DNA of 64,000 bases from Candidatus Marithrix sp. Canyon 246 (GTDB lineage: Bacteria; Pseudomonadota; Gammaproteobacteria; Beggiatoales; Beggiatoaceae): positions 1-64,000 of the forward strand of contig NZ_MCBX01000008.1 in NCBI RefSeq assembly GCF_001723685.1, given 5' to 3'. The notes under the pieces were generated by a model. That model did no database searches. It was not told where the DNA came from and was given only the letters and a program-made list of their open reading frames with translations. Positions 20,268 through 56,943 of the stretch are shown piece by piece; within the stretch, counting starts at the first letter, position 1; the number at the start of each line of letters is the position of its first letter. Both the position numbers and the translations under genes were made by a program.

Positions 20268-20928
20268 TTAATGAAACATTAAAAATACACACATAGCCAA
20301 TATTTCAAAGCAACTAATCACGATTAACATATAAGCAATGCGTCGCGCTGATGGTTTCATTGTTTGCCATACACGGCACATATACCACCGGTATAATGGA
20401 AACCATTTCCAGCGTTGCCAACTTTGTAAGTATTTATATATCGCGTTGCCCCAAGGGATTAGACTTTTGTCAACTTCAGCTAAGTCTGCTTCGGAGCTGC
20501 CGCTATAGTCGTCAGTAATTATTAACGCATTGGCTTCAATTTTTAAAATTGTTGCCTTTTTTATACCGCTTTCATAGTTAATTTTTAAGCCTTCTACTGA
20601 GATTGTGGTGTTTATTTCTTGGTTATTACTCAGGTTTTTGAAATGTATATGATAGGTATTAGTGTCAATTTGTCGCCATTCTATGAATTCTAGCAGTGGA
20701 TTTATACGATATAATGCCTTCTACTGAGATTGTGGTGTTTATTTCTTGGTTATTACTCAGGTTTTTGAAATGTATATGATAGGTATTAGTGTCAATTTGT
20801 CGCCATTCTATGAATTCTAGCAGTGGATTTATACGATATAATCGTTCTAAATCACTGCAAAATTCATGTAATTGCTTATTTGATAATGGGGTTGCTATAC
20901 GTACCCATGCTTTATCTTCACTAGACAT
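20268..20928 (-). pseudogene. Unknown membrane protein gene, copy 1, broken by a tandem duplication
   Basis: The frame starts at 20928 (MSSEDKAWVRIATPLSNKQL), overlapping usp by eight bases. A 127-bp direct tandem repeat (20589-20715 and 20716-20842) shifts the frame. Removing one unit restores a protein of about 178 residues that ends in a basic, Trp-rich segment (LQSWQRWKWFPLYRWYMCRV) and a membrane helix (YMLIVISCFEILAMCVFLMF). The family is not recognised. A second copy at 27792-28301 is broken differently. Ancestrally it was the last gene of an est-smORF-usp-unknown operon. Confidence 0.8.
20589..20842. repeat. 127-bp tandem direct duplication
   Basis: gccttctactgagattgtgg begins at 20589 and again at 20716, and both units end in gatttatacgatataat. 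The two units look identical by eye. Because 127 is not a multiple of three, the host gene is frameshifted. The paralogue near 28.1 kb holds this segment only once. Confidence 0.95.
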
Positions 20929-22661: not shown

Positions 22662-22694
22662 AGACCTGACAGGTTTTAAAAACCTGTCAGGTCT
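22662..22694. repeat. AGACCTGACAGG...CCTGTCAGGTCT hairpin copy 3
   Basis: A 33-base near-perfect palindrome with gttttaaaaac at its centre, followed by gagagtttttc. It is not directly behind a surviving gene, but gene debris surrounds it. Confidence 0.75.
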
Positions 22695-32855: not shown

Positions 32856-32888
32856 AAACCTGACAGGTTTTTAAAACCTGTCAGGTTT
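32856..32888. repeat. AAACCTGACAGG...CCTGTCAGGTTT hairpin copy 5
   Basis: A 33-base near-perfect palindrome ending ten bases beyond the stop codon (32899) of the minus-strand LRR protein gene, so it is positioned as a transcript end. Confidence 0.8.
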
Positions 32889-39057: not shown

Positions 39058-39090
39058 AGACCTGACAGGTTTTTAAAACCTGTCAGGTCT
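39058..39090. repeat. AGACCTGACAGG...CCTGTCAGGTCT hairpin copy 7
   Basis: A 33-base palindrome ending two bases from the purB stop (39093, minus strand), between purB and the PIN-like gene. It has the position and form of an intrinsic terminator. Confidence 0.8.
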
Positions 39091-40719: not shown

Positions 40720-40839
40720 TATTTTTTTGTTTAGTTCATTTAATAAGCTTTTTTCCTCAGTTTCATTCCAAACCATATGCCCATATCCAACCGCCGTCTT
40801 AGAACCTGAACCAGTAAATTCTAAGGCTTGAAGTAATGA
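40720..40839 (-). pseudogene. cmr6 3' fragment
   Basis: The frame reads SLLQALEFTGSGSKTAVGYG, the closing G-rich loop of Cmr6 RAMP proteins, then HMVWNETEEKSLL. The first ~90% of cmr6 is gone. It begins directly after the premature stop of the cmr5 fragment and in the same frame, so one deletion joined the two genes. Confidence 0.75.
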
Positions 40840-40983
40840 TTAAAAAATCGGCTGTAGAATCATAAACGGTAAAGCTGAAATATGGCTATGATATTCTTTA
40901 CATTCATCAGATTTTAATTGAGCTTTTGCGTTTGTAACTCCTTGTAAGGCAAATTTAGCGCGTTGTTGATCCATTGTTTGCAT
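40840..40983 (-). pseudogene. cmr5 5' fragment
   Basis: MQTMDQQRAKFALQGVTNAK followed by AQLKSDECKEYHSHISALPF and a stop at codon 48. This matches the first third of Cmr5, the small-subunit of type III-B effector complexes. It starts two bases after the cmr4 stop, the normal order. Confidence 0.8.
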
Positions 40984-40985
40984 AA

Positions 40986-41867
40986 TTAAACCTCACCTTG
41001 CAAGACTTTAACTTTACACCAACCCATACCAACAGTTTCATTACCGTCTATTCTTAAATAAGGATGCTTTTCAAATAAGTCACTAATTACATGATTTAAA
41101 ATATCATTAGCTTTTTTCTCACTCTTATTTTTACGAGAGTTTTGTGCGATTAAGCTAGTATAAAGCAATGTATTTGGTGGTAAGGTTTCTTGATACCATA
41201 ATGCACCGGGTATAGTTACTTTAGTTTCATTATCAATTGCGATATGAGCATCAACTGGAGTTGCATAGCGGCATAAATGGGCAAACATGTCGTCATTGAT
41301 AATTACCAATTGCTTGATTAAATTAGCCTTCAGGTCATTATTAATAAGTTTGATTATGTTATTAATAACATCCTTAACGTTTTTATTGGCTTGTGTTTTA
41401 AAACGAAATTCTTCTAAGAACAAATCTTGTTCAGGCAATTTATCATGCACTAAAGCAGTTTCATTGTCGATTGTAGAAGGTACAGAAAAACCATTAGCTT
41501 CTGGCAAACCTAAACGTTGATAATCAGCTTTCCAACGATCCAAAATGGCTGGACAAGTTACCCATTTAAAGTGTCCAGTTAATGAACGTACAGGTAATAA
41601 TAACAAACGCGCATCACTAACACCTAAAGCTCCGGCATGTTCAGAACCATGTTGCATATCTGGTCCAAATACCTCATCTATCCATTTAAATCCACGAGAT
41701 TCTGCTGATTGACGCAAAGCCCCTTTTACACCTGAACCATATACACAAGGATAACTTGTATGGTATTCGCGTTGAATAGGTAAATCAATATTACTTAACA
41801 TTTGCCCTGTTCCGGCGTGTAATGATGTTTCTGTACATAAGCCTAAAATGGCGGTTTTTTGTGACAT
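40986..41867 (-). CDS. cmr4: Type III-B CRISPR effector subunit Cmr4
   Basis: A 293-residue RAMP protein, the backbone subunit that cleaves target RNA. It carries LGLCTETSLHAGTGQMLSNI with the active-site region, YPCVYGSGVKGALRQSAESR, the ferredoxin-like folds and the closing glycine loop RIDGNETVGMGWCKVKV. No lesion is seen and the length is normal. It is the only intact gene of the Cmr locus; without Cas10, Cmr1, Cmr3 and Cmr6 no complex could form, so it is either a recent survivor or serves with parts encoded elsewhere. Confidence 0.93.
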   Translation of the reverse strand: MSQKTAILGLCTETSLHAGTGQMLSNIDLPIQREYHTSYPCVYGSGVKGALRQSAESRGFKWIDEVFGPDMQHGSEHAGALGVSDARLLLLPVRSLTGHFKWVTCPAILDRWKADYQRLGLPEANGFSVPSTIDNETALVHDKLPEQDLFLEEFRFKTQANKNVKDVINNIIKLINNDLKANLIKQLVIINDDMFAHLCRYATPVDAHIAIDNETKVTIPGALWYQETLPPNTLLYTSLIAQNSRKNKSEKKANDILNHVISDLFEKHPYLRIDGNETVGMGWCKVKVLQGEV

Positions 41868-42012: not shown

Positions 42013-42269
42013 TTACCAAACTCCAACAGCCAATTCTCCACGCCCATATTCTGTCTCTTCGCCAATATGATAACCATTCAAACTACTTGGATTACCACTT
42101 TCTATTTGACAAAACCAGACGCTGCCTGCTGGTATTAAACTAATTACTTAAAATTGTTAATTTTACTTCATTAATGTTACCGCGCCAAACTTTGGTTCCT
42201 TGTTTGTCAGTTTCTTCGGTAAATCCTTTTGGTAGCCAAAAACCGCACTAATAATGCCCCATCCACTTC
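42013..42269 (-). pseudogene. cmr3 3' remnant
   Basis: Frames here read DGALLVRF, then WLPKGFTEETDKQGTKVWRG and NINEVKLTIL, and after another lesion LIPAGSVWFCQIESGNPSSL followed by YHIGEETEYGRGELAVGVW. These are C-terminal features of Cmr3. At least one frameshift (in the TTTTTGG near 42240) and a stop near 42150 break it, and the N-terminal two thirds are deleted, so its 5' edge is fused to the cas10 tail. Confidence 0.75.
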
Positions 42270-43944
42270 TAATCTTATTCTGTTACCCGATACATAATCT
42301 GCCGCTAATAAGCTAACTGATTCATTTGCACTCAGAATTGCTTTTTCTCCTTTTGCAGGATTCAATAAGTCAAAACGTTGTCTTATTTTGTAGAAAAAGC
42401 CACTACTAAATTCATCATCGGCACGAAATTTTTCTACTATTTGTTCTATTATCAAGGCATTGCCCATTGTAGGGCTTTACCACCTTGTTTCCAGACTCGA
42501 ACTGCGATAGCGTCACGCCCACAGCCATCTTTGGCTACTTTGTCTAATAGGCTATGTGAATCTCTAAGAATTTTGGTTAGTGGCATTTTTATATGAGCAT
42601 ATTCTATCGCGCCAGATAAGGTGGAATTAATGCCGCTATCTTTAAAAGCTTCTAAATATTCATCGCGTAAATCCTTAGCACAAGCTAATGCGTCTTCTAA
42701 TGGTAAAATTGCTAATACATCATCTCCACCAGCATAGATTAAAAAGCCATTGTTTTTACATACGATATTATTTACTTTATCAGTAAACTTTTTTAAAGCG
42801 GCTGAAATTTTAGGTTGCTTTTCGGTAGAGCTCATATGTTTACCTAGAGAATCTCCATCCATTAATAAAATCGCATAAAATGGTGATGGTTTAGTTTCTA
42901 TATTTTTGAGTGCTGCTAGCATTTGTTTTGCCGCTGCTTAATTTTCTTCTTCTGCGTTTAGCAATTCTGATTCAAAAAATACTACTCCATCTAAAGCTGT
43001 TAAACGTTTAGTTTTATCAATACATTTAATATTAGTATTCCATTCTCCGTTTTCGATTCCAAGATTTTTAGCTGCTTTATATAAAGCTTCCAATGTTTGT
43101 TCATCTAAATCCCTTTTTAGTTTCTTTTCACGAATTTTTTTCCAAAAATTTTTTAATGTATTATTATCTTTTTTCTTTTTAATTTCTTCTTTCCTTTGAA
43201 TTTGATTTTGTAGGGTGGGTAGAGTGAAACGAAACCCACCATGCTCTTCTTTCTTTTGAATTTGGTTTTGTAGGGTGGGTAGAGTGAAACGAAACCCACC
43301 ATGCTCTTCTTTCTTTTGAATTTGGTTTTGTAGGGTGGGTAGAGTGAAACGAAACCCACCATGCAAGTTGTTATTATCATGATCTGGTGGGTTTCGCTCC
43401 GCTCTACCCACCCTACATGACTTCTCATCTACTTTCTCAGAATAAGGAACACCTGATAATTCTTGCCAACCAGTCATAATCATACATTTAACCCCCGGTT
43501 CAGCAGGTGTAAAGTGATTACGCCAATTTTTGCGACGATCTAATAAGTTAGATTCATTTGCATCATCAGTTATTACCCAACTGATTTCAAAGAAGTTATT
43601 TATTTGTCTATTCCATATTTTACGATGAATTGAATCTTCTTTGCAAAATTCTGCTAAATCTTGTTTCCATACTTCTTCAGCTAATTTTTGCCTTTAAAGC
43701 GATTTGGTATGTTACCTTGATGAGGTGGTGATTTTTCACCTTTGCCTTTTATCCATTTTAGATAATCTTCATCAGGTAATGGAAATATAATTTCTCCATT
43801 TTGGTTTTTTACTGAGTTCATTGCTATACCAGCTAACCAAGGTAGTAAAAATGAACCAGCCCAAAAGTCACGAGTACGTCGCGCTTGTGCTACAAAGCCT
43901 TGCACTGGTCCTAATATGAAAAAATAATGGGCTAGTGCGACTTT
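42270..43944 (-). pseudogene. cas10: cas10/cmr2, multiply broken
   Basis: Pieces in order: KVALAHYFFILGPVQGFVAQ and ARRTRDFWAGSFLLPWLAG (start codon missing, preceded by TAG); a frameshift in an A-run near 43686; KLAEEVWKQDLAEFCKEDSI and PGVKCMIMTGWQELSG; an in-frame repeat insertion at 43184-43416; an in-frame TAA at 42938; the palm domain FYAILLMDGDSLGKHMSS with FLIYAGGDDVLAIL; a frameshift near 42460; and the tail ALIIEQIVEKFRADDEFSSG. The GGDD active site for cyclic oligoadenylate synthesis is still legible. As it stands no full Cas10 can be made. Confidence 0.9.
43184..43416. repeat. Palindromic element with triplicated 60-bp left arm, inside cas10
   Basis: gtagggtgggtagagtgaaa plus cgaaacccaccatg pairs with ggtgggtttcgctccgctctacccaccctac (43386-43416), a typical short palindromic element. 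The left arm with its flank (cttctttcttttgaatttggttt) is repeated three times at exactly 60 bases (units near 43201, 43261 and 43321). Being a multiple of three, the array keeps the cas10 frame open as three copies of HGGFRFTLPTLQNQIQKKEE. Confidence 0.92.
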
Positions 43945-44476
43945 CTAAATCAAGACGATATTCTTTATATAAATTTCCTGCTTGTTGATTCGCTACTAAT
44001 AATTTTAAAACTACTATTTTTACTAAAAGCTGTATAAGGTGGATTGTCGGTTATATGTTGATATTTGTTTAAATACTTGTTCTTCAACTCGTTTGGGTTG
44101 GATATGGAGTAAATGCCATTCTGGTTGACAATTACGACTGGCTAAAATAAGACTAGCATCAAAAGCTTCTCTAACTGGTTATAATTCCTCACCAACATTC
44201 CGAAAATTAGTTTCAGCTTCTTTACGTCGCATCCAATATTTAATACTAAAAGCCCAAGCACTAATAAAAGAAACCCAACCTATTAAGGTATTAGAATTCT
44301 CAAACAAATCCAGCAAGGTATCATTATTAGAGCTGATTAACCAACCAAAAGAAAATTGTCAGAATGGTTAATATGGGATTACGTCTAGCGTTTTTAAGTG
44401 GCTATCATATCACTGGCAAGAACAAATTAAAAGTTTGGCAAATTTGCCGTGATGAAATATCAAAAGGAAAGGTATT
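43945..44476. other. Gene debris upstream of cas10
   Basis: On the minus strand (about 44330-43945) several short frames remain: a segment with a likely membrane helix (LLDLFENSNTLIGWVSFISA, then WAFSIKYWMRRKEAETNFRN) and, after a stop, PVREAFDASLILASRNCQPE and WHLLHIQPKRVEEQVF. They may come from a CRISPR accessory gene, but I cannot name it. On the plus strand 44390-44470 reads FLSGYHITGKNKLKVWQICR, the end of another lost gene. No intact gene is present. Confidence 0.55.
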
Positions 44477-44897: not shown

Positions 44898-45340
44898 AAT
44901 GCAATCTCTGTAGTTATTAATGATACAAAATACAAATTTCAATCACCTGCATTACTGAACACCCATTCAAGCTCAAATCCTTATACATACATATCTAACT
45001 AATTGATTTTAATAGCCCTGAAGGGGCGACATAATACAGCCTAGGGCAACGCCCTAGGGATGATGTATATTATATGTTAGCCCTGAAGGGGCGAAATAAT
45101 ATCCGTTCCTAGGGCGTTGCCCTAGGCTATATTATCCCAACCTAGCCCTGAAGGGGCGACATAATTTATCCTCATTATTTCGCCCCTTCAGGGCTGACAT
45201 ATAATATACATCATACCTAGGGCGTTGCCCTAGGCTATATTATGTCGCCCCTTCAGGGCTATTAAAATCAATTAGTTAGATATGTATATATATGAAATCC
45301 CTGCTAAAATGCAATCCCTGTAGTTTTATAAGGGCGAGGG
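44830..45340. mobile_element. Large nested inverted-repeat element
   Basis: The outer ends ccttataaaactacatggat...gcagggatttcatatatata (44837-44884) and tatatatatgaaatccctgc...tgtagttttataag (45286-45334) are inverted copies. Within lies a 113-bp inverted repeat (44988-45100 against 45174-45286). The element carries no gene and has entered the relE-like gene. Short relatives of the ends and middle occur near 20024-20048 and 21900-21943. Confidence 0.8.
44988..45286. repeat. 113-bp-arm inverted repeat with AGCCCTGAAGGGGCG motifs
   Basis: By hand alignment, arms 44988-45100 and 45174-45286 match at 110 of 113 positions when one is reverse-complemented. Each arm holds two agccctgaaggggcga blocks and a cctagggcaacgccctagg palindrome. 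The 73-base spacer carries further copies of both motifs. Confidence 0.93.
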
Positions 45341-56908: not shown

Positions 56909-56943
56909 TAAACCTGACAGGTTTTTAAAACCTGTCAGGTTTG
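56909..56943. repeat. AAACCTGACAGG...CCTGTCAGGTTT hairpin copy 8
   Basis: A perfect palindromic hairpin with a TTTTTAAAA centre, ending seven bases from the stop (56951, minus strand) of the SMR transporter gene. The position is that of a terminator between the SMR and methyltransferase genes. Confidence 0.8.

What the first reader, a model, noticed from the sequence alone, without database searches (positions are those of the whole stretch)
43184..43416. A palindromic repeat invaded cas10 in frame and its arm then amplified threefold
A GTAGGGTGGGT...ACCCACCCTAC element lies in the cas10 coding region. Its left arm plus flank is repeated three times with a period of exactly 60 bases, so the gene gained three copies of a 20-residue peptide without losing frame. 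Such elements are normally intergenic; here one became coding and expanded.
Basis: seen in the sequence. Interest (0 to 1): 0.6.

Follow-up and report, generated by a model that had tools for sequence, protein, structure and literature searches.

The report
Mobile palindrome repeats in dead cas10
A common small mobile DNA palindrome (a GTAG-type REP spread by a RAYT transposase) sits, with one arm tandemly tripled, inside the remains of a decayed CRISPR gene; it is a known kind of event, though in the same genome similar insertions lie in frame inside living genes such as those for DNA polymerase I and a purine-synthesis enzyme.

Summary
The DNA observation is correct. A 60-bp unit occurs three times at 43185-43364 (copies 2 and 3 identical, copy 1 differs at 2 bases), followed by an inverted arm at 43385-43417; the minus-strand frame stays open with a 20-residue repeat. 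The element is an ordinary GTAG REP: 83 copies in this genome, plus a RAYT transposase gene flanked by arrays of it. The host gene is not a working cas10 but a type III-B cmr2 pseudogene with at least five other lesions, in an operon where only cmr4 is intact and which the same-genus sister lacks at that place. No sampled relative carries the repeat (linker 8-17 residues, 101 here).

"In frame" is weak evidence: two of three minus-strand frames are open through the whole element. Tandem growth of one arm plus outer flank also occurs at intergenic REPs here. Intragenic REPs, and REPs repeated with flanking DNA, are already described (PMC3733652). New members of a known kind.

The parts
43185..43244 (-). 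Tandem unit 1 (60 bp): outer flank plus REP arm 43210-43240
   Evidence: differs from units 2 and 3 at 2 bases
43245..43304 (-). Tandem unit 2 (REP 43270-43300)
   Evidence: identical to unit 3
43305..43364 (-). Tandem unit 3 (REP 43330-43360)
43385..43417 (-). Inverted partner REP (43386-43416); with the arm at 43330-43360 it forms the basic REP dimer
   Evidence: (inverted repeats I1-I3, 91% complementary); hairpin z about -3
42938..43483 (-). Open segment of the cmr2 pseudogene that contains the REP array; ends in an in-frame TAA at 42938-42940
43690..43929 (-). N-terminal cmr2 remnant (Cmr2_N, PF12469) in another frame; about 22 residues lost and frame changed at its 3' end (~43690)
42452..42922 (-). 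cmr2 second palm domain remnant, GGDD motif intact (PF22335 E 1.8e-37, TIGR02577 E 2.6e-28)
42207..42467 (-). C-terminal cmr2 remnant in a third frame, with a large internal deletion
42016..42244 (-). cmr3 remnant: only C-terminal fragments in two frames
40986..41867 (-). cmr4, the only intact ORF of the operon
   Evidence: TIGR02580 E 1.7e-61
40771..40983 (-). cmr5 and cmr6 fragments

Best explanation
The element is a GTAG-type REP dimer (two hairpins, GTAG + GGTGGGT...AACCCACC) of a family of 83 copies that the genome's own RAYT (a Y1/HUH single-strand transposase) most likely spreads. It inserted in a variable linker of a type III-B cas10 (cmr2) gene, between the conserved GWQELSG and FW motifs. 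The arm nearer the gene's 3' end, with 24 bp of outer flank, was then duplicated twice by slippage or unequal recombination at the hairpin (an older first step, a recent second one). The cmr2 gene is now dead, through lesions other than this insertion, so the 20-residue repeats belong to no working protein. Open frame and period of 60 fit an event made while the gene still lived, but chance would also give them fairly often. Shown: REP identity and copy number, RAYT, tandem structure, pseudogene state, absence in relatives. Inferred: RAYT mobilisation, slippage, order of insertion and gene death.
For: REP: GTAG head plus hairpin, 83 copies against 0 for the reversed control, RAYT NF047646 E 3.4e-61 flanked by arrays of the same REP. 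Pseudogene: pieces in three frames with a stop at 42938, large deletions against relatives, cmr3/5/6 reduced to fragments, no other Cas10 palm domain in the genome. Insertion site: linker 8-17 residues in relatives, 101 here. Same tandem form at intergenic REPs: periods 70/60, 62, 57, 49. Sister genome has purB and the TRAP genes about 670 bp apart with no operon between.
Against: No same-genus cmr2 exists to give the exact empty site, and transposition itself is not shown. Net insertion and repeat period both divisible by three hint at selection for the frame, so the insertion may predate gene death; a dead gene need not keep a frame. The assembly is a 44-contig draft with several contigs ending in REPs, so the unit count may be off.
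Confidence: 0.88

Rival explanations
1. The repeats are a functional, selected insertion in a working Cas10, or in a split Cas10 made of several ORFs.
For: The frame is open, the period is a multiple of three, and the palm domain with GGDD is intact. REPs do sit in frame in living genes of this genome.
Against: Frameshifts near 43690 and 42455, a stop at 42938, loss of about 60 conserved residues (HLCAIAFVKRRF... region) and of the C-terminal region; cmr3, cmr5 and cmr6 are fragments, so no Cmr complex can form.
Confidence: 0.04
2. REP insertion and amplification took place after cmr2 was already dead; the open frame is coincidence.
For: Two of three minus-strand frames are open through the element, and REPs mostly lie in non-coding DNA. 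Chance of a net length divisible by three is 1/3, and of the period 1/3.
Against: Both lengths are divisible by three and the insertion is in the most length-variable linker, which is where a living gene would tolerate it. All three in-gene tandem arrays of the genome have periods divisible by three (60, 45, 51), whereas three of four other arrays do not.
Confidence: 0.35
3. Assembly or sequencing error created the tandem copies or the broken frames.
For: Draft assembly; many contig ends lie in REPs; copies 2 and 3 are identical.
Against: Copy 1 differs from the others at two bases; the lesions include deletions of about 20 to 60 residues, not single-base errors; neighbouring genes are intact; the same tandem form appears at several other loci.
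Confidence: 0.05

Closest known systems
GTAG REP elements (REP/BIME/REPIN) with their RAYT (TnpA-REP) transposases
   Same: GTAG head, short imperfect hairpin, high copy number, inverted dimers, RAYT gene flanked by the same REPs (PMC2817692, PMC3733652). [quoted passage not shown]
   Different: Nothing of principle; this host lineage was not found discussed in the papers searched.
Intragenic GTAG/CGTC REPs listed by Di Nocera et al. 2013
   Same: REPs in frame inside genes, including DNA polymerase I; clusters that encode 43-82 residues; suggested to be neutral in flexible linkers (PMC3733652).
   Different: Here about 90 residues and in a pseudogene. For pepP and copA the sister species shows the site without a REP, and for polA a shared insertion.
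Rickettsia palindromic elements (RPE)
   Same: Palindromes inserted in frame in coding sequence (described in PMC3733652).
   Different: RPEs have a CGTC tag and no dedicated transposase is known (PMC3733652); this family is GTAG with a RAYT.

Membership tests
GTAG REP element | GTAG tetranucleotide at one end | tested here: met
   All 83 copies in the genome, by the pattern itself
GTAG REP element | Short imperfect hairpin of about 20-40 nt | tested here: met
   7-bp stem, z-scores -2.8 to -5.1 as single-stranded DNA
GTAG REP element | High copy number, often as inverted dimers | tested here: met
   83 copies, mostly in inverted pairs; 26 copies in the sister, all in inverted pairs
GTAG REP element | RAYT gene in the genome, flanked by the same REPs | tested here: met
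   NF047646 E 3.4e-61; REPs on both sides
GTAG REP element | Mobilised by its RAYT | not testable with these tools
   Would need an in vitro or in vivo assay; presence/absence between sister species is consistent with it
Functional Cas10/Cmr2 | One continuous reading frame from the Cmr2_N domain to the C-terminus | tested here: not met
   Pieces in three frames, stop at 42938
Functional Cas10/Cmr2 | Conserved regions present | tested here: not met
   HLCAIAFVKRRF region and part of the C-terminus missing
Functional Cas10/Cmr2 | Partner genes cmr3, cmr4, cmr5, cmr6 | tested here: not met
   Only cmr4 intact

The most novel reading that the evidence does not exclude
In this genus REPs are a recurrent source of new in-frame protein segments: dimers enter interdomain linkers of living genes (polA, purL, copA, pepP, a hybrid kinase), in some genes grow by in-frame tandem duplication, and some are kept across species (polA), possibly with an effect on the protein; cas10 was one such gene before it decayed.
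Probability: 0.15. Interest if true: 0.45.

Novelty: new member of a known kind. Interest (0 to 1): 0.25.

Why it matters
By itself little: a mobile palindrome in a dead gene. The wider pattern gives a clean natural series for studying how REPs enter proteins: sites without a REP and filled sites between two species about 8% apart in protein, one shared insertion in polA, and arrays whose periods can be compared inside and outside genes. It also warns against reading 'repeat peptides' in such ORFs as protein function.

Tried and rejected
A first multiple alignment forced the REP peptide onto the conserved central part of Cas10; aligning the right-hand flank alone resolved it. Rfam showed nothing at the REP array itself. 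No paper on REPs in Beggiatoa-type bacteria was found. A family-wide search with a REP-encoded composite peptide listed mostly short or interrupted frames outside the two genomes of this genus; only the best places are listed, so this is not a census. The period-mod-3 contrast (3 of 3 in-gene arrays against 1 of 4 others) is too small for a firm test; one of the others, at C3 (L149), overlaps the 5' edge of a TTG-started ORF and so may not be strictly intergenic. REPs near the start of ORFs in L072, L075, L082, L090 and L094 were not counted as intragenic, because these ORFs may simply be extended upstream by the open REP frame.

Full report
What is there. At 43185-43364 a 60-bp unit occurs three times in tandem, followed after a 20-bp spacer by an inverted arm at 43385-43417. 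Read on the minus strand, the ORF 43483..42938 goes through all of it and encodes HGGFRFTLPTLQNQIQ(K/R)KEE three times. Units 2 and 3 are identical; unit 1 differs at two positions, so one duplication is older and one recent.

What the element is. Each unit holds GTAGGGTGGGTAGAGTGAAACGAAACCCACC: a GTAG head and a 7-bp hairpin. The same pattern occurs 83 times in this genome and never in reversed-letter form, and 26 times, always as inverted pairs, in the only other genome of the genus held. A RAYT gene (NF047646, E 3.4e-61) stands at G000:C30 with an inverted REP and three tandem REPs on one side and an inverted pair on the other. These are the defining marks of GTAG REPs and their transposases (PMC2817692, PMC3733652). 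That the RAYT moved this copy is inference.

State of the gene. The surrounding gene is cmr2, the type III-B cas10 (TIGR02577, PF22335, PF12469). It is not intact. Its N-terminal part lies in one frame up to about 43690, where about 22 residues are missing and the frame changes; the middle part, with the REPs, ends in a TAA at 42938; the palm domain continues in the same frame to about 42455; the C-terminal part is in a third frame and lacks a further stretch. About 60 conserved residues around HLCAIAFVKRRF are deleted after 43110. Of the rest of the operon, cmr4 is intact, while cmr3, cmr5 and cmr6 are short fragments. The genome has no other Cas10 palm domain. The same-genus sister has purB and the TRAP transporter genes about 670 bp apart, with no operon between. 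The nearest named relatives with Cas10 are Parabeggiatoa and Thiomargarita.

Insertion site. In the relatives where both motifs were found, the stretch between GWQELSG and FW is 8-17 residues; here it is 101. None of the relatives aligned showed the REP-peptide motifs tested. So the insertion is private to this lineage as sampled and sits in a variable linker, between the Cmr2_N domain and the second palm domain.

How much 'in frame' means. Read in this direction, all three frames of the tandem units, and two of three frames of the whole element, have no stop; an open frame is therefore expected more often than not. The period 60 and the net length are each divisible by three, each a 1-in-3 matter. 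This is mild evidence that the event happened while the gene was alive, no more.

The same thing elsewhere in the genome. I fetched most REP sites and scored 65 copies for position in ORFs; 20 lie inside ORFs of 100 codons or more. Leaving out those near ORF starts and a truncated duplicate of copA, 11 REPs lie well inside five long genes: purL (3 REPs, period 45), polA (2), copA (3, period 51), pepP (2) and a hybrid histidine kinase (1). For four of these the sister species gives a direct comparison. In pepP and copA the sister has the site without REPs. In polA both species carry the REP dimer at the same place, so it predates their split. In purL the sister has a different palindrome (CCTGACAGGTTTTTAAAACCTGTCAGG type) in the same loop. 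dN/dS between the species is 0.13-0.17 for all four genes (computed), so they are under purifying selection and the insertions are tolerated. Pfam places the insertions between domains in polA, purL and the kinase, and inside a domain match in copA and pepP.

Tandem growth. The pattern 'one arm of the dimer plus its outer flank, repeated' is not peculiar to cas10. It occurs at C11 (70, 70, 70, 60), C14 (62), C30 (57, 57) and C3 (49) outside the long genes, and in purL (45) and copA (51). Inside genes the periods are all divisible by three; outside, three of four arrays are not. This fits growth everywhere with frame filtering in living genes, but the numbers are small.

Comparison with the literature. 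PMC3733652 reports REPs inside genes of many species, including DNA polymerase I, clusters that encode 43-82 residues, large clusters of REPs repeated in tandem with segments of flanking DNA, and the idea that linker insertions are neutral. The same paper recalls the in-frame palindromes of Rickettsia. The present case is a new member of this kind; the amplified copy in cas10 happens to lie in a dead gene.

Verdict. Observation confirmed; interpretation partly supported; interest low to moderate.

Noticed in passing
G000:C22:193798-196407 (L091) and G001:C6:113869-116490 (L114): An in-frame REP dimer in the interdomain linker of polA is shared by both species of the genus (about 91% protein identity), so it has been kept since before their split.
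   Followed up: partly
L077:2086-2209 (purL) and L104:3425-3451 (sister purL): The same purL loop holds three GTAG REPs in this genome and an unrelated palindrome (CCTGACAGGTTTTTAAAACCTGTCAGG type) in the sister, both in frame.
   Followed up: partly
window 22665-22691, 32859-32885, 39061-39087, 56913-56939; L025:1198-2255: A second palindrome family, CCTGACAGGTTTTTAAAACCTGTCAGG, occurs four times in the window; close variants lie in arrays with about 66-bp period on both sides of another Y1 transposase gene in this genome, which looks like a second palindrome-transposase pair.
   Followed up: partly
window 45014-45058 (-) and 45216-45260 (+): Two Acido-Lenti-1 (RF01687) matches in the gap between the cmr remnant and the TRAP genes; similar repeats recur many times in the sister genome, so this 'RNA' may be another mobile palindrome.
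   Followed up: no
G000:C40:42326-42482 and 44159-44315 (L070): The 3' part of copA, with its REP trimer, is duplicated in tandem as a truncated second copy (99% identical).
   Followed up: no
starts of G000 contigs C5, C9, C11, C14, C20, C26, C27: Several contigs of the assembly begin within about 120 bases of a REP, so REP arrays probably break the assembly and unit counts may be uncertain.
   Followed up: no
window 20589-20849: A 127-bp tandem duplication, 98% identical, elsewhere in the window.
   Followed up: no
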